A DNA stretch of 64,000 bases, taken from assembly GCF_010730355.1 (NCBI RefSeq), contig NZ_AP022576.1:1426001-1490000 (forward strand). Direction: 5' to 3'. This document shows, one piece after another, positions 2,771 through 20,882 of the stretch. The DNA comes from Mycobacterium florentinum (lineage in GTDB: Bacteria > Actinomycetota > Actinomycetes > Mycobacteriales > Mycobacteriaceae). The translations under genes were made by a program, and so were the position numbers. The notes under the pieces are model-generated. The model was given only the letters and a program-made list of their open reading frames with translations. It was not told where the DNA came from and searched no databases. How positions within the stretch are numbered: the first letter of the stretch is position 1; each line of letters begins with the position of its first letter.

Positions 2771-2842
2771 GCGCGATTAGCTCAGCGGGAGAGCGCTTCC
2801 CTGACACGGAAGAGGTCACTGGTTCAATCCCAGTATCGCGCA
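2771..2842 (+). tRNA. tRNA-Val(GAC), integration target of the adjacent element
   Basis: Acceptor GCGCGAT pairs with ATCGCGC, the anticodon loop CTGACAC gives anticodon GAC, and CCA is encoded at 2843-2845. The 3' part of the gene from the T-loop onward is duplicated perfectly at 12789-12816, so this gene is the attachment site. The copy here keeps the tRNA intact. From general knowledge, phiRv2 of M. tuberculosis also sits in a tRNA-Val gene upstream of the Rv2668 region. Confidence 0.97.
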
Positions 2843-2850
2843 CCAGAGTT
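2823..2850 (+). repeat. attL: 28-bp direct repeat overlapping tRNA-Val 3' end
   Basis: This 28-bp stretch starts in the T-loop of tRNA-Val(GAC), runs through the CCA and ends 5 bp past it. It is identical to 12789-12816, and the first flanking base differs on each side (G/C on the left, C/T on the right). It is the left boundary of the integrated element and reconstitutes the tRNA 3' end. Confidence 0.95.
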
Positions 2851-3223: not shown

Positions 3224-4069
3224 ATGAGTGTGGCGGACGCCGCGCTTATCGCAGAAGCTTGCACTGCCTTGAGTGTGGTGGACAATGGCCCGATCGGAGC
3301 TCTAGGTGGTCAGAAGGCCGTCCGCTTGGTTGACCGATCAGGGCAACAATGCGTGCTGAAGGTCGTCGCGCTCACGGCGACTTCGCCTACAACGCTCACG
3401 AGAGCCGAACGCGAAGTCGAGCTCCTAAAGTCACTGACTAGCCCGCACGTCGTGAAGGTCGTATCCGACCTCGTTGCCCTGGGCAGTCCCGCGCGCGGTG
3501 CAACATGGCTGGAGGAGTTTCTCGACGGCGAGGACCTGAGTCCGCTGCTTACCAGCAAGTGGTCATGGTCTGACGTGGCCCGCCTTGGTTACGAAGTGGC
3601 GCTCGGTTTGGCAGCCGCCCACGCCAACGGCGTCATACACCGGGACCTCAGCCCCAACAACGTGCGACGGCTATCGAGCGGCAGCTACAAGGTTATGGAT
3701 TTTGGCTTCGCCCGCCACACGCTCAGGACCGGCATAACAGGTATCGGACAGCCGGGCACGTACGGCTATCACACCCCGGAGCACATGAACGCTTACTCCG
3801 GAGTTCCTATGCCGTCCTCCGACGTCTTCGGCGTCGGCATCCTGATGTACCAAGCACTGACGGGGAATATCCCCATTCCGTATCACGGTGACGATGCAGA
3901 CTACGCTCGCCGCTTGCAGCGAGCAGAGCTTGTCGCCGACCTTGGGACCGAGCGACCAGATCTAGGTGCTGGCGAGCAAGCGATAGTGCTTCAAATGCTC
4001 CACGCTCAGCCTGCCCGGCGATTCCGCAACGGCCGCAAGCTCGCTGATGCATTGGAGCCGTTCGTATGA
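3224..4069 (+). CDS. Soluble Ser/Thr protein kinase (element cargo)
   Basis: 281 residues made up almost entirely of a eukaryotic-type protein kinase domain. Visible features are the ATP-anchoring Lys46 (VLKVV), likely Glu65, catalytic HRD at 139-141 with Asn146, DFG at 159-161, a TPE in place of APE at 184-186 and Asp200. The glycine-rich loop is reduced (GALGGQ). There is no membrane segment and no sensor domain, unlike chromosomal Pkn proteins. All catalytic residues are present, so it should be active. The stop overlaps the next gene by 4 nt (ATGA), implying a two-gene operon. GC content looks lower than in the core genes, in keeping with transfer. Cytoplasmic kinases in phage-borne cargo can act in abortive infection; that role here is inference. 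Confidence 0.88.
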   Translation: MSVADAALIAEACTALSVVDNGPIGALGGQKAVRLVDRSGQQCVLKVVALTATSPTTLTRAEREVELLKSLTSPHVVKVVSDLVALGSPARGATWLEEFLDGEDLSPLLTSKWSWSDVARLGYEVALGLAAAHANGVIHRDLSPNNVRRLSSGSYKVMDFGFARHTLRTGITGIGQPGTYGYHTPEHMNAYSGVPMPSSDVFGVGILMYQALTGNIPIPYHGDDADYARRLQRAELVADLGTERPDLGAGEQAIVLQMLHAQPARRFRNGRKLADALEPFV

Positions 4070-5223
4070 GCATTTGGATCGAGGACAGTCCACGAAACTT
4101 GGCCGGCTGGATTATTGAGTCCGTAAGCAGCGGCTCCGCAAGTGGCGCCGTAATCACGCCCTGGGCAACGCCATTTCAACAACATGCCGGCGCCGGCAGG
4201 AAGCCGAGCGCGGCAAACCGCATCGCCGAGTTACAAGCTGGCGGTGTCAACGTGATGTTCGATCCCATGACGCACGTCCTGCAGATGAGCGGTGTTGGTG
4301 ACCTTCGCTTCTACGATGAGTACGACCTTTGGGCAGGGGCACGCGGAGACCTGTCTGATCAGGCCCTTATAGAGGGTCACGTGGACAAGGTGTTCGGGAT
4401 ACAAGATTCGCTAAACGTATCTCATTGTGCTCCAACGGTACTCCTGCACTCTGGCTTGGAAATGTTCAGCGTTGTGGCTTTGGACGTGGCCCGAGAAGCG
4501 ATTCGCCGCGATCCACGCGCGGTGCTGACAATTGCGGGTACGCCACCCTTCTGGGCCAGTGGGGCGGCACTGGACGCACATATCGGCGCCCTCGCTTCCT
4601 TGGACCCGTCAGCATGGGTGTTAACGGTTGTCAGAACCGAGACTGAGCTTCCCGTCACGGTCCAAGCCGAGGAGGTACATGGACTTTGTCGGACAACGAG
4701 GGCACTGAGCGCGGATGCGCCTGTACACATCTCGCACGGAGATCTCGCAGGCTTGCCCGCCATAGCTGCCGGCGCGTCAACTTTGGGATCCGGGTGGGAT
4801 CAACGTCAGCGAGTTTGCGCGCACGGCCATTACGGCCCTAGGGATCCGGGATCAGACGGCGGAGGCGGCTGGTACAAACGGCCGACGCTCCGAGGATTGC
4901 TCGGAGTGATCAGGTCGAACGAGGGGATAGTCTTGAACTCGCGTGACCCCGGCCTAGTCGCCCGTCTCGGCGGTCTACCAGTTGACGCGGTTCGCGAGGC
5001 TTTTGACCACCACCTCGCAACACTTTCGGCAGTCGTTGATGGGATCAAAGCCGAGCAAGATTGGGCGACAAAATATCGGCACCTCGCAGCGTTGTATGAC
5101 GCTGCGAGGGCCGATTGGCCCACCGTGCAACGACAGGCCACCACCACTACCAATGGTCGCCATTGGATCGACGGCGTAGCAGGTGGTTTGACGCTTTATG
5201 CGCGGACAGAAGGTTGGGCGTAA
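4066..5223 (+). CDS. Unknown protein coupled to the kinase (element cargo)
   Basis: 385 residues, not recognised. It begins at the ATGA overlap with the kinase, so co-production and a functional link are likely. The middle shows alternating hydrophobic strands and helices with a TPPFWASG stretch near residue 170 and a GLPAIAAGASTLGSGWDQ stretch near residue 230. This reminds me of TIM-barrel phosphate-binding turns, but I cannot name a family. The sequence between about 245 and 270 is rich in Gly, His, Asp and Arg. No signal peptide or membrane segment. It could be the kinase substrate, an effector or a sensor. The gene converges with and overlaps the next one by 28 bp. Confidence 0.8.
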   Translation: MSIWIEDSPRNLAGWIIESVSSGSASGAVITPWATPFQQHAGAGRKPSAANRIAELQAGGVNVMFDPMTHVLQMSGVGDLRFYDEYDLWAGARGDLSDQALIEGHVDKVFGIQDSLNVSHCAPTVLLHSGLEMFSVVALDVAREAIRRDPRAVLTIAGTPPFWASGAALDAHIGALASLDPSAWVLTVVRTETELPVTVQAEEVHGLCRTTRALSADAPVHISHGDLAGLPAIAAGASTLGSGWDQRQRVCAHGHYGPRDPGSDGGGGWYKRPTLRGLLGVIRSNEGIVLNSRDPGLVARLGGLPVDAVREAFDHHLATLSAVVDGIKAEQDWATKYRHLAALYDAARADWPTVQRQATTTTNGRHWIDGVAGGLTLYARTEGWA

Positions 5224-5963
5224 GAACGAGTGGCGGCGAAAAAGTGCTCTGATGCTAAGAATTTGAGTGCACTCGAGCGCTTCGAGATACGCGGCCGGAC
5301 TATCCATTTCCCGGCGACTACCAAGCCCCCCCGGTCGGCGTGAACTGCGGCAGTCACTAGCTCAAGCGGCCCACGACCAAGCGGCCCCAAGACGAGCACG
5401 TAGCTGTCAGCCCAAGTCAAGTAAGCGCGGGCTTGATTCGTTGCGGCGACGCGATCGCGAACTTTTGCTTCGATCGCATACACCCGGCCAGCTGGCTGCA
5501 ACGCTTCGGGACGAATGTATCGACTTTCCCTAACCTGGTGCAGGGCACCACGATCCAGAAGTCCTGGCAAGCGACGAATCACGGTGCTGGTTGGCCAACC
5601 CAGTGAGTGTGCAATGCTATCAACCGTTTTCGGGACCTTTGCCGCAGTAACCGAAATTATGGACGCATCCAGGCTGTTAAGGATGGGTGGGACGTCAAGT
5701 TCGGACCGCAGCTGCAGTGCATCAGCACCGCCAACCATCGCGGTGAAATCGGGGATTCCGATCGGGCCCGTCATTTCTCGGACGACAATGACTCCGCGGT
5801 GAGCCCCGGGTAGTGCGCCGCTTGCGGCAACCGCATCGCTGTGAAGCGCCGCCTCGTGAATCGGTTCGAATCGCCGACCAGGACGTGGAGCACTCGTGTG
5901 CCGAACCGCCGTCAACGCCACTCTTATAACTCTTCCATAACATCGCTCCAACCAAGCCGACAT
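5196..5963 (-). CDS. Winged-helix protein with PD-(D/E)XK-like residues (element cargo)
   Basis: 255 residues on the minus strand, converging on the kinase operon with a 28-bp 3' overlap. Two stretches resemble a restriction-endonuclease-type core: IGIPDF at 68-73 (Asp72) and YAIEAK at 162-167 (Glu165, Lys167). Between them, about 95-150, lies a winged helix-turn-helix-like segment (VDSIAHSLGWPTSTVIRRL). A wHTH set between the acidic residue and the ExK of a nuclease fold is unusual. It could be a DNA-cutting effector, a nuclease-derived regulator, or a plain transcription factor with chance motifs. The start at 5963 is the first ATG; shorter starts are possible because the first 40 residues look basic and disordered. 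Confidence 0.7.
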   Translation of the reverse strand: MSAWLERCYGRVIRVALTAVRHTSAPRPGRRFEPIHEAALHSDAVAASGALPGAHRGVIVVREMTGPIGIPDFTAMVGGADALQLRSELDVPPILNSLDASIISVTAAKVPKTVDSIAHSLGWPTSTVIRRLPGLLDRGALHQVRESRYIRPEALQPAGRVYAIEAKVRDRVAATNQARAYLTWADSYVLVLGPLGRGPLELVTAAVHADRGGLVVAGKWIVRPRISKRSSALKFLASEHFFAATRSYAQPSVRA

Positions 5964-6190: not shown

Positions 6191-6754
6191 CTATGTGGCG
6201 TCCAGCCCAGATCGGCCAACGCCGAGCTTTCTTCGCTTCAAGGCGCTGGCGAGCCTTTGCGTCCGCGCGTTCACCGCCCAGTACTGTCCTGATGCGTCCC
6301 GAAAGGCCGCGTAGTAGTCGTAAACCGCTGGGTTGTATTCAAGTTTGGGTAAGTGTTCTACCGTTTGGCCATCAGCGAGGTAAAGCTCACTGCCGTCGTG
6401 GTAATTCAGGAATGTGTGCCCGCCCCGGTATGAGAGTTTGTTGTCGGTCGGCCAGCTGAACGGACCGGAGTTGGTCCAGCCCTTTGTCGCAAGCTTCGCG
6501 ATCTGGCGTTGAGTCTTCGAAGCAATGACGCATCGGTGATCGAAGACGGGTTTGCCGGAGAGGTTTTGAATCTTGATCTTGGGGGGTCCGTGCTCATGCG
6601 GGTGGAGCCATACCAGCACCGAACTGGCCTGGGTTCGCTGGTCGCGCTGACGGTCGAACATGTAATAGGTCGCTGCGGCCAGCACGGATAGTCCGGTCAG
6701 GAGCGCTCCAGTCCAGGCGGCGACGGTTCCCCATTCTGCCGGATCGAACGACAT
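6191..6754 (-). CDS. Hypothetical membrane-anchored protein (element cargo)
   Basis: 187 residues from the ATG at 6754-6752 (MSFDPAEWGT); a start at 6805 is also open but adds an unlikely extension. One N-terminal membrane helix (about residues 8-30) is followed by a basic stop-transfer segment and a soluble domain of about 150 residues rich in aromatic and charged residues. No family recognised. It belongs to the cargo block between the nuclease-like gene and the small secreted protein, and could be a membrane-acting partner, but nothing in the sequence proves that. Confidence 0.65.
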   Translation of the reverse strand: MSFDPAEWGTVAAWTGALLTGLSVLAAATYYMFDRQRDQRTQASSVLVWLHPHEHGPPKIKIQNLSGKPVFDHRCVIASKTQRQIAKLATKGWTNSGPFSWPTDNKLSYRGGHTFLNYHDGSELYLADGQTVEHLPKLEYNPAVYDYYAAFRDASGQYWAVNARTQRLASALKRRKLGVGRSGLDAT

Positions 6755-6922
6755 GGCGGCACCATAACGCCACGGCGCGGTCACCGCTTGGATGCCACGC
6801 TGCACCTCAGAACCTCACCGCCACCGGGATCGGCCCTTCGGTTTTCGCCGATTCGCCTTTCGGGTCCGCTAGCACGATCATTTCCGGGACACCGCGTTAA
6901 TGTCGACGACACAATAGGCGGC

Positions 6923-7150
6923 ATGAACGTCCTGGCCGCCGTCGCGCTTTCCGCAGCATTCTTCGCCCCGACGGCTCCTGCGCCGCCGTTCTCGCCGTCA
7001 AACTGCCAGCCGGTGAGCAACGGCGGCAATTGCTATCAGCCGGGCCAATTCTGCCGTAACAGAGACCACGGCATAACCGGCGCGACCGCTGACGGCCAAA
7101 AGATTGTTTGCACCAACAATGATGGTTGGCGTTGGGAACCCGCCTCCTAA
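6923..7150 (+). CDS. Small secreted four-cysteine protein
   Basis: 75 residues from the ATG at 6923. A signal-peptide-like N terminus (MNVLAAVALSAAFFAPTAPA) is followed by a compact domain with Cys28, Cys37, Cys44 and Cys63, probably two disulfides, and the pattern CQPVSNGGNCYQPGQFC. The family looks like small exported mycobacterial proteins of unknown function. The upstream in-frame ATG at 6788 gives a proline- and arginine-rich leader without a signal and was rejected. Its presence inside the element suggests a lysogenic-conversion type cargo gene. Confidence 0.65.
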   Translation: MNVLAAVALSAAFFAPTAPAPPFSPSNCQPVSNGGNCYQPGQFCRNRDHGITGATADGQKIVCTNNDGWRWEPAS

Positions 7151-7797: not shown

Positions 7798-9225
7798 TTA
7801 TGCCACAAGAAGTCTAAAGGCGGCATCGTTGACGGAATCGCTACCCCAACGCGCATAGCTGTACAACCCGCGCTGGCCGGTGGGCCTCATGTTGGCCCCC
7901 AGCAGATGCGGGATCAACTCCACAGCGCTGCCGATCCGCTGGGACACAACGAAATTCCGGAAATCGCCGTACAGCAAGACCGGGTTGTTACCAGCACCAC
8001 CACCAAGCGCCGCCGACATGTTGGACAACTCGGCGACCGGCTTGCCCAGCAACGTGGGCACCGTGGCACGTAACTCCGGAAACAGCAACGCACCGTTGCT
8101 GGTTTCCATGGCGCGCAACAGATTCAGGACCCCAAGGTTGGCGCACCACCGTGCGTTGGCCTGCCAGCGCGGCCCCAACGTGTTCTGAAGTTTGTACACG
8201 TCGGCGGCGGTAATGGTGTCAGCGGTCGCCGTGGCCACCACCGAGCTGCCACCCGTCAACGCGGTCACGATTCCTGTGGGGGAACCAGTTCCGCTGCCGT
8301 TGGTCAGGGCTTCGTTCAGCAACTGCAGCTGGCTGTCGGCCATCAAGCGGCCCAGTTCCCCCAAAAGCGTTGGCGCGTCCTGGGATACCTCGATGCTGAA
8401 CGGCACGAACGTTGCCGATTTATACGCCGGGATGGACGGCTCGGTGAACGCGGGCGAGTCATCCGACACCTCAGAAGCCTCTGCATCCCAGCTGCTTTGG
8501 ACGCCGAGACTCGTTACACCATGCCAAACGTCCGTCACCGTGGAGACGACCCGTGAGATCTGCAACAGCGAGTTTTCCGATCCCGCACTGGTCAAAATCA
8601 CAGTCGGATCCAACTCGTACGGCACCAAAAATCCGCCGGCCGCGTCGGAAAGGCTTGCGGCGCGCTGCTCTTGGCGCAACCGCGCGACCCGGTCGTAGGC
8701 TGCCCGCTCCTCGGCGGTCCACTCCAAACCCGCGCGAGATTCTCCGTGAAAAACCAGCTTGGCGAACGCTGAACGATAGGCGTCTGAGCCGGTGTCGACC
8801 ACCCACCGGGCGACCCATTCAGCACCGCTCTCGGGGCCGGCCGAAACCAGCCGTTCCACCACCTCGGCGGACCGGGCCGGCAACCCCGCCTTCACCGAGC
8901 GCTCGAGTCGCCGCAGGGCCGCGGTCTGTGACCCGTTGTGCCGCTCGCTGCCGCCGCCCAGCTGAGATTCTGACGGCGAACCGCGTTCGAGCCGCAGCGA
9001 GCCGTCACCTCGTGCTGCCCCGGCGATCGCCCCGGCCAGCACCGCGTCGCGGTCGAGCTTTTCGATGTGGCGGGTCAGTGTGTCGAACTCCTTGCCGAGC
9101 TCGTCGGCCTCGATGCCCGCCACACGCGACAAGGTGGGTGTCGCGGCGAGCTGTTCCAGGCGCGCTGAAATCTCTTCCATGCGCGTGATGGTGGACTCTT
9201 TGTTGAGCCAAATTGTCTTCGTCAT
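7798..9225 (-). CDS. HK97-fold phage major capsid protein
   Basis: 475 residues from the ATG at 9225-9223, which has AAAGGA upstream; the longer frame start at 9426 is rejected. The N-terminal 130 or so residues are helical and charged (ARLEQLAATP...), like the scaffolding delta domain of HK97 capsids. The shell domain follows from about residue 190, with the typical GGFLVPYELDPTVI entry and a C-terminal stretch LLYGDFRNFVVSQRIG. It forms the icosahedral shell in this phage family. No prohead protease, portal or terminase gene adjoins it, so on its own it cannot build a virion. This suggests a satellite that resizes or supplies a capsid using helper functions, or decay. Confidence 0.92.
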   Translation of the reverse strand: MTKTIWLNKESTITRMEEISARLEQLAATPTLSRVAGIEADELGKEFDTLTRHIEKLDRDAVLAGAIAGAARGDGSLRLERGSPSESQLGGGSERHNGSQTAALRRLERSVKAGLPARSAEVVERLVSAGPESGAEWVARWVVDTGSDAYRSAFAKLVFHGESRAGLEWTAEERAAYDRVARLRQEQRAASLSDAAGGFLVPYELDPTVILTSAGSENSLLQISRVVSTVTDVWHGVTSLGVQSSWDAEASEVSDDSPAFTEPSIPAYKSATFVPFSIEVSQDAPTLLGELGRLMADSQLQLLNEALTNGSGTGSPTGIVTALTGGSSVVATATADTITAADVYKLQNTLGPRWQANARWCANLGVLNLLRAMETSNGALLFPELRATVPTLLGKPVAELSNMSAALGGGAGNNPVLLYGDFRNFVVSQRIGSAVELIPHLLGANMRPTGQRGLYSYARWGSDSVNDAAFRLLVA

Positions 9226-9505
9226 TTTTGGGTCCTTTACGGTTGCCCAGGGCTTGTTGTCTGTGGGAAAGCGGTGGCGGGACGGTGTGACCGGCAGGCC
9301 CCACCCGGCTATGTCAGGGGTGGGGCCATACGCGGCACCAAACCAATTCCACTGCTGTGTCCGAGAATCCGGGCAGCGAAGCTGCTCGGGCGGACAAAAT
9401 GCGGGCTGCGGGCTTCTGGCGTGCATCCCCTCCTGGGGTGCCCTGCGAAGTCACGAACTCGCACAGTCAGAATAGCGCCGGTCACCGACAAAGCAACCAG
9501 CACAC

Positions 9506-11116: not shown

Positions 11117-11326
11117 TCACCATTCGCTGATCGGGCGCAGGGTGACCTGGTCAACCTCGTTGAGGTCGATGCGGATCAGGCGCGGTCCGGCCTTGTAGGC
11201 CTTGATACGGTGATCGGAAATCATTTGCCTGACCGTTTTATCGCTGACCTGCAGGTAGTCGGCGGTTTCCTGGATTCCGCGCCAGCGGCGTGCTTCAGGC
11301 GCTGGCGCTGGTTTCTTGCGTGTCAC
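11117..11326 (-). CDS. xis: Excisionase / recombination directionality factor
   Basis: 69 residues from the GTG at 11326-11324, with AAAGGGG as ribosome site. It is a small MerR/AlpA-like helix-turn-helix protein: RWRGIQETADYLQVSDKTVRQM is the recognition region, followed by a wing (AYKAGPRLIRIDLNEVDQ). Such proteins bend the att arms and switch the integrase toward excision. It lies directly after the integrase on the minus strand, the phiRv1/phiRv2 arrangement. The longer open frame to 11464 lacks a start signal. Confidence 0.85.
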   Translation of the reverse strand: MTRKKPAPAPEARRWRGIQETADYLQVSDKTVRQMISDHRIKAYKAGPRLIRIDLNEVDQVTLRPISEW

Positions 11327-11439
11327 TGAAAATCCCCTTTGACGTCCGGGAGGGGTTGTTTTCCCCAACCTGGTTAAAGGGGTTGTACTTCGGCCTGGGA
11401 GGACTGATTTGGAGGTAACTAACCCAGCGTGTCTCTGGC

Positions 11440-11497
11440 TAAACGCGCTACACAGTTGCTCCACTGGGGTAGTTGCACAGGGTAAACGCGCTACACA
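11440..11497. repeat. Two 15-bp direct repeats between int and xis
   Basis: TAAACGCGCTACACA occurs exactly at 11440-11454 and 11483-11497, 43 bp apart (about four helical turns), just past the integrase stop and upstream of xis. It may be a regulator operator controlling xis and downstream genes, or an arm-type integrase/excisionase site. No repressor gene is recognisable in the element. Confidence 0.6.
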
Positions 11498-11503
11498 AAT
11501 TAG

Positions 11504-12625
11504 TCAGTTGTTTGCGAGTTTGCTTAGCAGCGCCGCAATCTCGTGGTCGCGCCCCTGGGCGGCGTGCTGGTAACGCATGGCGGCAGCTGGGGTGGAGTGC
11601 CCCAGGCGGGCCATCAGCTCGGCCAGTGACGCGCCCGTCGCGGCTGCCAGCACGGCACCGGAGTGGCGTAGGTCGTGCCAGCGCAGATCGGGCCGTCCGG
11701 CAGCGGCGCGCGCCCGGTACCAGTGGCGCATGAGGGTGGATGGTTGCAGGTGGCCGCCTCGATCGTTCGGGAATAGCAGTGAATCACGCTTGCTGCCAAC
11801 ATATTTGGACAGATGCGCTTCAATGGCCGGGATTAGGTGCGGTGGAATGGCAACGTCGCGCACACCGGCATCGGACTTGGGTGTGGTGACTTGAAACCCG
11901 CCGTGTTTGGTGCGCACCGCGGCCCGCCGGACACGGATCACCTCTGTCGACAGGTCAATGTCGCCGCGTTGCAGCTCGATCGTCTCCCCGAACCGAAGCG
12001 CGCACCAGGAAGCGAGCGCGACCATCAGCTGCAGCCGCTCGGGCATTGCGGCAGTGACCGTGGTCAGCTCCTCCACCGACGCGGGCCGGATCTTATGGAC
12101 GCGCTTGGTGCGACCCGCCCCCACGATCCGCGCGGGATTGCTGTCGATCAACTCGTCGTTGACCGCGCTGGCCATGATCGTGCGCAACAGGCTGTAGGCG
12201 TGGGAGCGCATGGTGGGCCTGTCGGTCAGGGTCGTGGCGTGCCAGTCGCGCACATCTTTGGGCGTGATGCCGGCGATTTGACGGTCCCCGAACGTGGGCA
12301 GCAGGTGGTCGTCCAGGATGGCGGTGTAGTGCTCGCGGGTGCGTGCCTTGATGGGACGGCCAGCGACCTGGCGTGTGGCCAACCAGCCCGAGGCATAGGC
12401 ACCGAAGGTCACGCGCTCCGGCTTGGCCACAGCGGCCGGGTTCCACAGTTTGCTCTCGATCTCCCGGCGCCGGTCAACCAGGTAGGCCTCGGCGTCGATC
12501 TTCGCGGCGAACGTTTGCGGGGCCGTGTTGTAGCTGCCGTCCGGCCCGGTATAGCGCACGTGGTAGCGGCCTGATGGCAGCTTGCGGATGTTGCCGAACG
12601 AGCGGTGTCCTTTTCGGTTGGCCAT
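11504..12625 (-). CDS. int: Tyrosine site-specific integrase
   Basis: 373 residues from the ATG at 12625-12623 (MANRKGHRSFG); a 13-residue upstream extension is open but unlikely. Order: arm-binding N domain, core-binding SAM-like domain (about 75-165), catalytic domain. The catalytic set is complete: Arg211 (CALRFGE), Lys250 (TPKSD), His317 and Arg320 (HDLRHSG), His343 (LGHST) and Tyr352 (MRYQHA). It recombines the tRNA-Val attB with attP. It lies 160 bp from attR and is transcribed away from it, as is usual. Confidence 0.95.
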   Translation of the reverse strand: MANRKGHRSFGNIRKLPSGRYHVRYTGPDGSYNTAPQTFAAKIDAEAYLVDRRREIESKLWNPAAVAKPERVTFGAYASGWLATRQVAGRPIKARTREHYTAILDDHLLPTFGDRQIAGITPKDVRDWHATTLTDRPTMRSHAYSLLRTIMASAVNDELIDSNPARIVGAGRTKRVHKIRPASVEELTTVTAAMPERLQLMVALASWCALRFGETIELQRGDIDLSTEVIRVRRAAVRTKHGGFQVTTPKSDAGVRDVAIPPHLIPAIEAHLSKYVGSKRDSLLFPNDRGGHLQPSTLMRHWYRARAAAGRPDLRWHDLRHSGAVLAAATGASLAELMARLGHSTPAAAMRYQHAAQGRDHEIAALLSKLANN

Positions 12626-12788
12626 GGTGTGCGGTCCCCTGTGGTCGTGCCAATGGCGTACCAATACAGGTTACTTCTAGGTCCGCGAACCTCCGACTAT
12701 TTCCACTAGTGGAGTGTGGTGTCTACCCAGCTTAGAGGCATATTCACGCTGCTCACACACCACACCCGCAACATACCAGCATGACTAC

Positions 12789-12816
12789 TTCAATCCCAGT
12801 ATCGCGCACCAGAGTT
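12789..12816 (+). repeat. attR: 28-bp direct repeat
   Basis: Identical over 28 bp to 2823-2850. It marks the right boundary of the element. The bases that follow (TCACCTGTTCAGGC...) belong to the pre-insertion chromosome and partly match the flank of a degenerate copy at 23706-23745. Confidence 0.95.
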
Positions 12817-18899: not shown

Positions 18900-20882
18900 T
18901 CACTTCGCGGGCAGCTTCACGACCCGGTCGCCGGTGTAGTCGGTGACGTAGATGTTGATGGCCCTGTCCACCGCGATACCGCTGGGGTGGTTGAGCCCGA
19001 CGAACGGCAGCACGCTCTGCTTCTGGGTACCGGCCTCCATCTTCAGCACCCGATTGTTGGTGTAGTCGGTGACGAAGATGTCGCCCCCACTGTCGACCGC
19101 CACACCGCTGGGGTCCCCGGGGGTGAACAGGCCGCTGAACGGCACCACGGTCTGGCGCCCGGAGTCCGCGGCCAGCTTCACCACCCGGCTGTTGCCCGAG
19201 TCGGCGATGTAGACGTTGCGACCGTTGTCCAGTCCCACCCCCTCGGGCCCGTTGAGGCCGGTGAACGGCAGTTCGGTCGGGGTGTTCGAACCGGGGGCCA
19301 GCTCCAGCACCCGATTGACGTCGGTATCGGCGATATAGAGCGCGCCCGCATCGTCGGTCGCCACCCCCTGGGGCCGGTGCAGCCCGGTGAACGGAAGCAC
19401 GATCGGCGTGCTCGAGCCGGCCGCCAGCTTGAGCACCCGATTGTTGTTCGTGTCGGTGACAAACAGGTTGCCGGCGCCGTCCGCCGCCACGCCCTCGGGC
19501 GAATTGAGACCCGGGAAGGGAAGCTCGACCGCGGTGTTCGAGCCCGCCGCCAGCTTCAACACCCGATTGTTGATGTCGTCGGCGACGTAGACGTTGCCGG
19601 CGGCGTCCACCTCCACATCGGCGGGGTGGCCAAGCCCGTTGAACGGCAACGTGATCTGCGGACCGAATAAGGGGTCGTGATGCTGCGTGGACTGCTTGGC
19701 CTGATCAGTCTCGAGCTTGCCGACGACGACGACGAAGGCGACCACCACAACGGTCGACGTCAACAGCGCAGCGGGAATCATGATGCCCGGCCGGCGCCAC
19801 CACGGGGCCCGGGCCGGGGTGTCGTCCTCGTCGGCCCACGGCTGCTTGAACGGATCGGACGACCCGTCGGGGGGCGGTTCGACCGCGAGATACGAGGTGA
19901 CCGGCGGTGGGGTCGCGGAATACCCGTCCGCGGCCGGGCGAGGCCCCGGCTCGGGTGACATGGGCTGTTCCTGATCATCGGACGCAGCGTGTTTGACCAT
20001 GATGGGAGCCTTTTCGGGTCGCGGTGGTGGCGTCAGCGGGAGCGCGCCCCGACGCGCTCGGGCGGCCGGCGCGGTGATGGCATCGCGGGCGGCGCCGGCC
20101 AACCCGACGGCGGTGGCATACCGGTTGGCGGGGTCTTTGGCCATGCCAGTGGCGATGACGTCGTCGAGGTGCGGGGGCACGCCGGGCTGCGTGACAGACG
20201 GTCGGGGTGGCGGGCTGCTGAGGTGGGCGGCGAACAGCCAGGTGTCCCCGGCGAACGGCGGCTGTCCGGTCAGGCATTCATAGAGCACGCAGGCCAGCGA
20301 GTAGACGTCGGCGCGGGCGTCGGCCTCGCGAGCCCCGGATCGTTCGGGCGCCATGTAGTGCCAGCTGGCAATCTCGTTGTCGGAGTTCGTCAATCGCGTT
20401 TCGTACCAAGGCGCCAACCGAGCGATCCCGAGATCGACCAGGTACGCGAAGTCGTCGCGATCGAGCAGGATGTTGGAGGGTTTGACGTCGCCGTGCACCA
20501 GGCCGACCTCGTGCGCGGCGTGCAGCGCCGCCGCCACCTGCTCGATGATGTACACCGCGCGGGCCGGCTCGACCGGGCCCTCGGCCAACACCTGTTTCAG
20601 GTTGCGGCCTTCGATCAGCTCCATGGCGATGTACAGCTGCTGGTCGATTTCGCCGAAATCGTGGATGGGAATGATGTGCGGGTTGTTCAGCCGGGCCGCC
20701 GCGGCCGCTTCCCGGTGAAACTGCTCCGCGATCGCGGGGTCGGCCGCCAACTCGGGTGGGAGCACCTTGATCGCGGCGGTGCGGTTGGCGGTCGCGGTGT
20801 CATACGCGCGCCACACCTGCCCGAGATCGCCTCGGCCCAACAGCTCTACGAGCCGATAGCGGCCAAACTCCTCTCCCTCCAC
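18900..20882 (-). CDS. PknD-like transmembrane Ser/Thr kinase with NHL beta-propeller
   Basis: 660 residues from GTG 20882. A kinase domain (about 8-272) has Lys39, Glu57, Asp132, Asn137, DLG at 150-152 and APE at 178-180. A Pro-rich juxtamembrane linker (280-360), one membrane helix (about 367-388) and an extracellular six-bladed NHL propeller (about 405-660, repeats of NRVLKLAAGS) follow, the PknD architecture. Oddity: the HRD motif reads HGD (130-132), so the arginine that docks on a phosphorylated activation loop is missing; such non-RD kinases are often constitutively active or weak. A paralogue rather than the pknD orthologue is likely given the unrelated locus. Confidence 0.9.
   Translation of the reverse strand: MEGEEFGRYRLVELLGRGDLGQVWRAYDTATANRTAAIKVLPPELAADPAIAEQFHREAAAAARLNNPHIIPIHDFGEIDQQLYIAMELIEGRNLKQVLAEGPVEPARAVYIIEQVAAALHAAHEVGLVHGDVKPSNILLDRDDFAYLVDLGIARLAPWYETRLTNSDNEIASWHYMAPERSGAREADARADVYSLACVLYECLTGQPPFAGDTWLFAAHLSSPPPRPSVTQPGVPPHLDDVIATGMAKDPANRYATAVGLAGAARDAITAPAARARRGALPLTPPPRPEKAPIMVKHAASDDQEQPMSPEPGPRPAADGYSATPPPVTSYLAVEPPPDGSSDPFKQPWADEDDTPARAPWWRRPGIMIPAALLTSTVVVVAFVVVVGKLETDQAKQSTQHHDPLFGPQITLPFNGLGHPADVEVDAAGNVYVADDINNRVLKLAAGSNTAVELPFPGLNSPEGVAADGAGNLFVTDTNNNRVLKLAAGSSTPIVLPFTGLHRPQGVATDDAGALYIADTDVNRVLELAPGSNTPTELPFTGLNGPEGVGLDNGRNVYIADSGNSRVVKLAADSGRQTVVPFSGLFTPGDPSGVAVDSGGDIFVTDYTNNRVLKMEAGTQKQSVLPFVGLNHPSGIAVDRAINIYVTDYTGDRVVKLPAK

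What the first reader, a model, noticed from the sequence alone, without database searches (positions are those of the whole stretch)
3224..5963. Candidate undescribed cargo/defence module: soluble kinase, coupled unknown protein, wHTH nuclease-like protein
Seen: a catalytically complete stand-alone kinase shares an ATGA overlap with a 385-residue protein of no recognised family. A convergent gene, overlapping by 28 bp, encodes a protein with PD...ExK-like residues split by a winged helix. All three sit at the attL end of a satellite-like element, where such elements typically carry anti-phage or conversion genes. Known: cytoplasmic kinases and PD-(D/E)XK nucleases each occur in phage-defence systems. 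Inference: the trio is one system, with the kinase as switch.
Basis: partly seen in the sequence, partly recalled or inferred. Interest (0 to 1): 0.85.

Follow-up and report, generated by a model that had tools for sequence, protein, structure and literature searches.

The report
Candidate kinase–TGT-fold–nuclease defence module
A small virus-like passenger in a bacterial chromosome (probably a mycobacterium) carries three genes that occur together in diverse actinobacteria: a protein kinase, a protein folded like enzymes that swap bases in tRNA, and a nuclease-like protein; they look like a bacterial immune system not described before, though no function has been tested.

The parts
2823..2850 (+). 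attL core (28 bp, identical to attR), 3' end of tRNA-Val(gac) 2771-2845
3224..4069 (+). Ser/Thr-type protein kinase, 281 aa, catalytic residues complete
   Evidence: PF00069 6.2e-26; K46 E64 H139 D141 N146 D159 in 18/18
4066..5223 (+). 385-aa TGT-fold (beta/alpha barrel) protein, gene overlapping the kinase gene by 4 bp
5196..5963 (-). PD-(D/E)XK nuclease-like protein with inserted winged helix (residues ~97-150); likely start GTG near 5921
6191..6805 (-). 204-aa ORF, N-terminal hydrophobic stretch (by eye), no family; element gene, not part of the conserved trio
7798..9426 (-). HK97-type major capsid protein of the satellite
   Evidence: PF05065 1.7e-41; TIGR01554
10164..10961 (-). replication-initiation-like protein
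   Evidence: phrog_270 9.6e-14
11117..11464 (-). excisionase-like HTH protein
   Evidence: TIGR01764 3.3e-11
11504..12664 (-). tyrosine integrase
   Evidence: phrog_1 2.2e-62
12789..12816 (+). attR core

Best explanation
The trio is an undescribed three-gene anti-phage (anti-invader) system, carried as cargo by satellites, phages and plasmids and also found beside other defence genes, in Actinobacteria and one Chloroflexi genome. Shown: the three genes form one conserved, co-inherited module; one encodes a kinase with complete catalytic residues, one a TGT-fold protein with a fully conserved residue set, one a PD-(D/E)XK nuclease-like protein with a winged helix. Inferred, in falling order of likelihood: (1) it protects against phages or other elements (~0.8); (2) the basic wHTH nuclease is the effector and cuts DNA (~0.75); (3) kinase and TGT-fold protein form the sensing/licensing unit, the kinase switching its partners by phosphorylation (~0.6); (4) the TGT-fold enzyme breaks or exchanges the glycosidic bond of a guanine-like base in DNA, marking or damaging the DNA that the nuclease then cuts, without the host's preQ0 pathway (~0.45).
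For: All three genes in 18 of 19 distinct loci, the 19th (L012) starting about 260 bases before the 385-aa gene. In these 18 the kinase and TGT-fold genes overlap in all, with longest-ORF starts, by exactly 4 bp in 13; the nuclease is convergent in all, overlapping in 15 and within 30 bp in 3. Distance matrices: kinase-TGT .954, kinase-nuclease .890, TGT-nuclease .892; 0/2000 permutations each. In draws of 397 genomes of the order, both profiles find the same 3 genomes and 4 loci (own included), the nuclease profile adding one weak partial hit. 27 contig lengths recur in both homologue tables (120 and 118 rows compared). TGT fold; nuclease fold and catalytic residues. Nuclease median pI 10.4 against 5.7 for the TGT-fold family. 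Context: DISARM DrmMI/A/B/C upstream in L002, PDC-S28 in L003, type III R-M in L011, type II R-M in L057, MTase_II in L013; satellite L010 and phage contigs L014, L061; plasmid L020. Two of nine other elements fetched from the same tRNA-Val site carry a NACHT-like protein (L104) or PDC-M36A plus TIR-TM (L112) at the attL side.
Against: No functional data. TGT kinship rests on fold alone: hhalign against 30 TGTs of the same phylum plus E. coli found nothing, and the barrel is a common fold. No residue-level superposition was possible; D245, nearest by offset to TGT's nucleophile (recalled), is lost in 3 of 174. For the nuclease model Foldseek's 50 listed rows show mostly winged-helix proteins, no nuclease, and nothing reaches E<=0.001; the nuclease matches come from VIA's second look. 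Neighbouring defence genes were picked by eye before the PADLOC scans, with no random-locus control. L104's NACHT match is just under Pfam's cut-off and has no PADLOC match. 13 of 18 kinases read DPG instead of DFG. In L061 the kinase and TGT-fold ORFs are 2 bases apart, not overlapping, by my calls. The genome searches scored only 4 or 7 candidates in each listed genome. Action on DNA, rather than on RNA or a partner protein, is not shown.
Confidence: 0.55

Rival explanations
1. Restriction-modification-like: the TGT-fold enzyme constantly marks the cell's own DNA by base exchange, and the wHTH nuclease cuts unmarked DNA; the kinase only tunes this. With 7-deazaguanine as the mark it would be a minimal Dpd-like system.
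Against: No DpdA match, although E. coli TGT matches the PADLOC DpdA model at 2e-8. Full-length QueC in 1 of 14 trio genomes; four more have matches of 53-72 of 210 positions above the family cut-off, two of them (G376, G568) with TGT; canonical TGT in 3 of 14. A kinase has no usual place in R-M. A mark other than deazaguanine, or a scavenged base, is not excluded.
Confidence: 0.2
2. Kinase-toxin system like KKP: the kinase poisons the cell on infection, and the TGT-fold protein and the wHTH protein restrain or regulate it.
For: KKP is a prophage-borne kinase module with antiphage activity (PMC11341870, abstract and outline seen). Kinase and TGT-fold proteins have the most similar distance matrices (.954). 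The wHTH could act as a repressor; Foldseek's best match for this protein is a regulator.
Against: The nuclease catalytic set is invariant in 138-139 aligned sequences and the TGT-fold protein has a fully conserved polar residue set; neither is expected of a mere antitoxin. No phosphatase is in the trio.
Confidence: 0.12
3. Type IV CBASS-like protein chemistry: the TGT-fold protein binds or modifies a partner protein (kinase or nuclease) instead of a nucleic acid.
For: Cap10 is a tRNA-transglycosylase-family enzyme remodelled to bind a modified protein N-terminus (PMC11996544, abstract seen). The TGT-fold family is acidic (median pI 5.7).
Against: No CD-NTase or QueC-like match among the ten element ORFs scanned with Pfam, and no QueC in the own genome.
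Confidence: 0.1
4. A life-cycle function of the satellite (helper exploitation, packaging or maintenance) or a host regulatory function, not defence.
For: The window copy and L010 lie on capsid-carrying satellites.
Against: The trio also occurs on a plasmid and at sites beside R-M or DISARM genes with no capsid gene noticed in my gene calls. 0 of 18 other capsid-bearing regions of the genus that I fetched hold the TGT-fold or nuclease gene (some look like fuller prophages).
Confidence: 0.08

Closest known systems
Dpd (7-deazaguanine DNA modification-restriction), DpdA
   Same: A TGT homologue linked to DNA restriction; described in passages of PMC12839542
   Different: No DpdA sequence match; three small genes only; includes a kinase; full-length QueC in 1 of 14 genomes
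Type IV CBASS Cap10
   Same: TGT-family fold remodelled for immunity (PMC11996544 abstract)
   Different: No CD-NTase or QueC-like match in the element ORFs scanned, no QueC in the own genome; kinase and nuclease instead
BRC systems with TGT (PMC12839542, passages)
   Same: TGT homologue in a subset of defence operons
   Different: BRC has seven components (PglZ, DUF6079, STAND-NTPase, DUF4007, HerA/FtsK, GNAT, TGT); apart from the TGT fold none is in the trio
KKP kinase-kinase-phosphatase module (PMC11341870, abstract/outline)
   Same: Mobile-element-borne Ser/Thr kinase module
   Different: No phosphatase; has a TGT-fold protein and a nuclease
PaqCI type IIS endonuclease (residues 3-185) and 3dnx (SPO1766)
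   Different: Here a protein of about 241 aa on its own, with a winged helix inserted between the catalytic Asp and the E-x-K strand
Mycobacterial candidate PICIs (PMC10654092, passages)
   Same: Integrase plus capsid element in a tRNA gene
   Different: The passages seen name PEST systems as cargo and do not mention this trio

Membership tests
tRNA-guanine transglycosylase (PF01702) | matches the family profile | tested here: not met
   no match for the protein nor for any of 50 family members at E<=1; hhalign no similarity
tRNA-guanine transglycosylase (PF01702) | TGT fold | tested here: met
tRNA-guanine transglycosylase (PF01702) | CxCxxC...H zinc site (recalled) | tested here: not met
   CxCxxC in 0 of 174 family sequences
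tRNA-guanine transglycosylase (PF01702) | two catalytic Asp at the barrel mouth (recalled as D102/D280 in Z. mobilis) | tested here: inconclusive
   D66 (170/173) follows the strand at 62-65 as D102 follows its strand (recalled); D245 (171/174) or D226 (174/174) could be the second; no superposition was possible
Dpd system | DpdA | tested here: not met
   no PADLOC match; positive control E. coli TGT matches PDLC02807 DpdA at 2e-8
Dpd system | preQ0 supply (QueC) in the genome | tested here: not met
   0/1 own genome; of 13 others 5 pass the family cut-off, but only 1 (G014) over the full length, 4 over 53-72 of 210 positions
Type IV CBASS | CD-NTase and Cap9 (QueC-like) partners | tested here: not met
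   none among the ten element ORFs scanned with Pfam; no QueC in own genome
PD-(D/E)XK nucleases | alpha-beta-beta-beta-alpha-beta core | tested here: met
PD-(D/E)XK nucleases | catalytic D...ExK, with helix Glu and Gln | tested here: met
   E37 138/138; D72, E165, K167, Q177 139/139 aligned sequences, 138 of them distinct
PD-(D/E)XK nucleases | cuts nucleic acid | not testable with these tools
   needs purified protein
Protein kinase (PF00069) | profile match and catalytic residues | tested here: met
   91.8 bits against 31.7; catalytic residues 18/18
PD-T4-6 defence kinase (PADLOC) | specific model match | tested here: inconclusive
   E 1.9e-35, but another kinase of the same window, outside the element, scores 1.6e-148 against the same set of models: not specific
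Anti-phage defence system | restricts phage | not testable with these tools
   needs plaque assays
Anti-phage defence system | lies with mobile elements and other defence genes | tested here: met
   5 of 20 distinct loci on satellite, phage or plasmid, 5 more beside PADLOC-matched defence or methylase genes; picks made by eye, no random control
PICI-like satellite | integrase plus major capsid, att repeats, no full phage gene set | tested here: met
   ten main ORFs of the element scanned
PICI-like satellite | mobilised by a helper phage | not testable with these tools
   needs phage experiments

The most novel reading that the evidence does not exclude
A new chemistry of bacterial immunity: a kinase-licensed TGT-fold enzyme, cut loose from the 7-deazaguanine pathway, removes or swaps bases in invading DNA (or modifies its nuclease partner), and a wHTH-split PD-(D/E)XK nuclease finishes the job; the whole fits in 2.7 kb and is traded between satellites, phages, plasmids and defence islands of Actinobacteria and Chloroflexi.
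Probability: 0.35. Interest if true: 0.9.

Novelty: new variant of a known kind. Interest (0 to 1): 0.75.

Why it matters
If it restricts phage, it is a compact immune system of Actinobacteria, a phylum for which a survey names a discovery bias (PMC10482375, section heading and passages). It would be a further recruitment of the TGT fold to immunity besides Dpd and type IV CBASS, here in genomes that mostly lack a full-length QueC, and would join it to protein phosphorylation. It offers three sharp sets of inactivating mutants (D141; D66/D226; E165/K167) for direct tests.

Tried and rejected
Sequence kinship with TGT: Pfam scans of 50 members and hhalign with 50 and with 174 sequences against 31 TGTs gave nothing; only the fold supports it. 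Foldseek E-values alone are uninformative for barrels: glycosidases rank first, with lower TM-scores. BFVD: a viral queuine tRNA-ribosyltransferase only at rank 9, E 0.013. No Cap10 or DpdA entry appears in the 50 rows; that excludes nothing.

PD-T4-6 as a label for the kinase: rejected after the control. CARF/CasR hits of the nuclease in PADLOC cover the winged-helix region and are regulator-type matches. PDB sequence search with the nuclease profile found winged-helix or regulator chains, best E 0.01; with the TGT-fold profile four chains, the best a lectin at 3.9e-4 without a stretch passing on its own, none of them of interest.

A clean empty attachment site: not found. The query matches in 57 of 60 genomes of the genus, mostly by its left flank, but the matches that start in the left flank carry on no more than about 35 bp beyond the repeat. 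The first genome-contig scan with the single protein found no relative; the alignment query gave 12 loci. No match in 50,697 phage records; 1 of 72,556 plasmid records. Promoter scan: none found, 1.0 expected. Rfam: only tRNAs.

PADLOC picks without a clear defence match: L003:35-1657 only pAgo at 4.4e-6; L082:4312-4545 and L082:4545-6005 none, L082:6024-7295 weak mad1/CARF hits; L013:2362-3105 none; L008 proteins helicase- or methylase-type matches (best DrmD 1.1e-12) and PDC-S68/RecD-type matches (best 3.5e-19); L104:360-4091 and L112:17356-17871 none. One of 18 capsid-bearing regions (L091) has a kinase-like gene but neither partner.

Papers: eight answered full-text searches listed no paper that I recognised as describing this trio; several lists were capped, one found no paper at all, and the library is open-access PMC only. 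Seen: passages of PMC12839542, PMC10654092, PMC13092281, PMC10482375; term searches without hits in PMC12458937 and PMC13279940; abstract/outline of PMC11341870 and PMC11996544; the rest by search listing only.
Full report
WHAT IS THERE. The window lies in a 6.2-Mb single-contig genome; its name is not told, and I take it for a mycobacterium from gene content (inference). Between a perfect 28-bp repeat at 2823-2850 (3' end of tRNA-Val gac) and 12789-12816 sits a 10-kb element with a tyrosine integrase, an excisionase-like protein, a replication-initiation-like protein and an HK97 capsid protein, all on the minus strand. This is the anatomy of the mycobacterial candidate PICIs described in PMC10654092 (passages). 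The trio occupies 3224-5963, between attL and the capsid gene. The nuclease probably starts at a GTG near 5921, judging from its homologues and the low-confidence first 15 residues.

IT IS ONE MODULE. At E<=0.01 the 385-aa protein finds 285 proteins and the nuclease 213, its own included; a profile search found 332 of the former. The candidate lists were capped. In one search, 19 of 19 had the nuclease gene and 18 of 19 the kinase gene; the exception, L012, begins about 260 bases before the 385-aa gene. L061, found later, also has all three. In the 18 compared the order is kinase > 385-aa > < nuclease. The first two genes overlap in all, with longest-ORF starts that are plainly too long in two, and by exactly 4 bp in 13. 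The nuclease overlaps tail to tail in 15 and lies within 30 bp in 3. In L061 the first two ORFs are 2 bases apart. Identity to the window's 385-aa protein falls to 31%. Pairwise distance matrices correlate at .954 (kinase-385).890 (kinase-nuclease) and .892 (385-nuclease), 0 of 2000 permutations reaching each. Because the bait was the 385-aa protein, I asked the reverse: the nuclease profile in a draw of 397 genomes of the order (the same number, and the listed genomes agree with those listed for the 385-aa profile) found the same 3 genomes and 4 loci, own included, plus one weak partial match at 9.6e-6. Between the two homologue tables 27 contig lengths recur, which suggests many more linked pairs. 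The kinase was not used as bait, since kinases are too many. One 2.2-Mb genome, G376, holds two divergent copies.

THE KINASE. PF00069, complete catalytic set in 18 of 18; the DFG motif reads DPG in 13 of 18. PADLOC's PD-T4-6 models match (1.9e-35), but the kinase at 18900-20882 of the same window, outside the element, scores 1.6e-148 against the same set, so this label carries no weight.

WHERE IT LIVES. Mobile: the window's satellite; a second satellite, L010 (Mycobacterium europaeum), with a different capsid family (phrog_1650), rep and integrase, and a 34%-identical trio on the capsid side away from the integrase; phage contigs L014 (capsid, portal, terminase) and L061 (terminase, portal); a mobilizable Dietzia plasmid, L020. 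Next to defence genes: L002 after DISARM DrmMI, DrmA, DrmB, DrmC (the kinase gene begins 83 bases after DrmC's stop); L003 with PDC-S28; L011 with type III R-M; L057 with type II R-M; L013 with a type II methyltransferase. That is 10 of 20 distinct loci. These neighbours were chosen by eye from my gene calls before scanning, and no random-locus control was run; picks without a defence match are told under Tried and rejected. L004, L005, L006, L009, L058 and L060 have recombinases, transposase-like genes or integrases by eye; of these only the L060 integrase was confirmed by scan. L059 shows no such mark. The family is sparse: 3 of 397 genomes of the order and 2 of 396 of the phylum, the own genome included in both, with four candidates scored in each listed genome.

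THE CARGO SLOT. I fetched nine of the genomes of the genus in which one search showed a second att-like copy; all nine carry elements of 8.7-19.0 kb in the same tRNA-Val gene, with an integrase homologous to the window's near the attR end. None was seen to hold the TGT-fold or nuclease gene. At the attL end L104 has a protein with NACHT matches just below Pfam's cut-off (no PADLOC match), and L112 has PDC-M36A and TIR-TM proteins; L104 also holds an Mrr-type endonuclease-helicase further in. The other seven were not scanned.

7-DEAZAGUANINE. The obvious reading of a TGT fold beside a nuclease is a small Dpd system. The own genome has neither TGT nor QueC (0 of 1 each; controls ring in 14 and 12 of 14). 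Of 13 further trio genomes, 5 pass QueC's family cut-off, but only G014 over the full length; G376, G568, G953 and G957 (and a second place in G014) match over 53-72 of 210 positions, as expected of other PP-loop enzymes (inference). TGT is present in 3: G376, G568, G950. So no genome of the 14 has a full-length QueC together with TGT, though G376 and G568 have TGT and a partial QueC match. Some of these assemblies are incomplete. For comparison 87 of 149 genomes of the phylum match TGT. Host-made preQ0 is thus unlikely to be the general substrate; scavenged bases are not excluded. Type IV CBASS shows that a TGT-family protein (Cap10) can be remodelled to bind a protein (abstract of PMC11996544), so action on a partner protein remains a rival.

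HOW IT MOST LIKELY WORKS. Shown: a conserved three-gene unit, its predicted folds, invariant residues, mobile and defence contexts. Inferred: on infection the kinase, whose gene overlaps that of the TGT-fold protein and whose distances follow it most closely, licenses its partners; the TGT-fold enzyme attacks a base; the basic nuclease cuts DNA. Rivals and refuting results are listed in their sections.

NOVELTY. PADLOC 2.0 has no matching model for the TGT-fold protein, Pfam none, and eight answered open-access full-text searches, several with capped lists, showed no paper that I recognised as describing the trio. Later DefenseFinder releases and subscription journals were not available. I file it as a new variant of a known kind (a mobile multi-gene defence system), with a fair chance of new chemistry.

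Noticed in passing
L104-L112 (same tRNA-Val gac site as window 2771-2845): The tRNA-Val(gac) gene is a hot spot: nine other genomes of the genus carry 8.7-19.0 kb elements there with homologous integrases; two scanned ones have a NACHT-like protein (L104) or PDC-M36A plus TIR-TM (L112) at the attL side.
   Followed up: partly
kinase residue 160 (window 3224-4069) and homologues: 13 of 18 kinases of the module read DPG where kinases usually have DFG, while the other catalytic residues are kept.
   Followed up: no
G376 (L016/L057 and L018/L058): One 2.2-Mb genome carries two divergent copies of the trio (42% and 32% identical to the window's 385-aa protein), one beside a type II R-M system.
   Followed up: partly
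L057 and L059: In two different genera the trio lies near a gene whose start reads like the YchF GTPase (by eye); possibly a shared integration spot.
   Followed up: no
6788-7150 (+) and L082 7220-7642: A small secreted-looking ORF beyond the capsid gene seems conserved in another satellite, judged by eye from the reverse-frame ORF.
   Followed up: no
6191-6805 (-): 204-aa ORF with a hydrophobic N-terminal segment between nuclease and capsid; no family matches above cut-off.
   Followed up: no
L082 4312-7298: The element with the best-scoring other capsid (55% identity, one stop inside) carries, in the corresponding tRNA-side slot, a ParE-like toxin gene, a TPR protein and a 424-aa protein with weak MAD1/CARF-type hits.
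   Followed up: partly
L060 3688-6570: A 960-aa protein with a DnaG-type zinc ribbon, matching PADLOC RTasDnaG-like at 4.1e-19, lies between an integrase gene and the trio.
   Followed up: no
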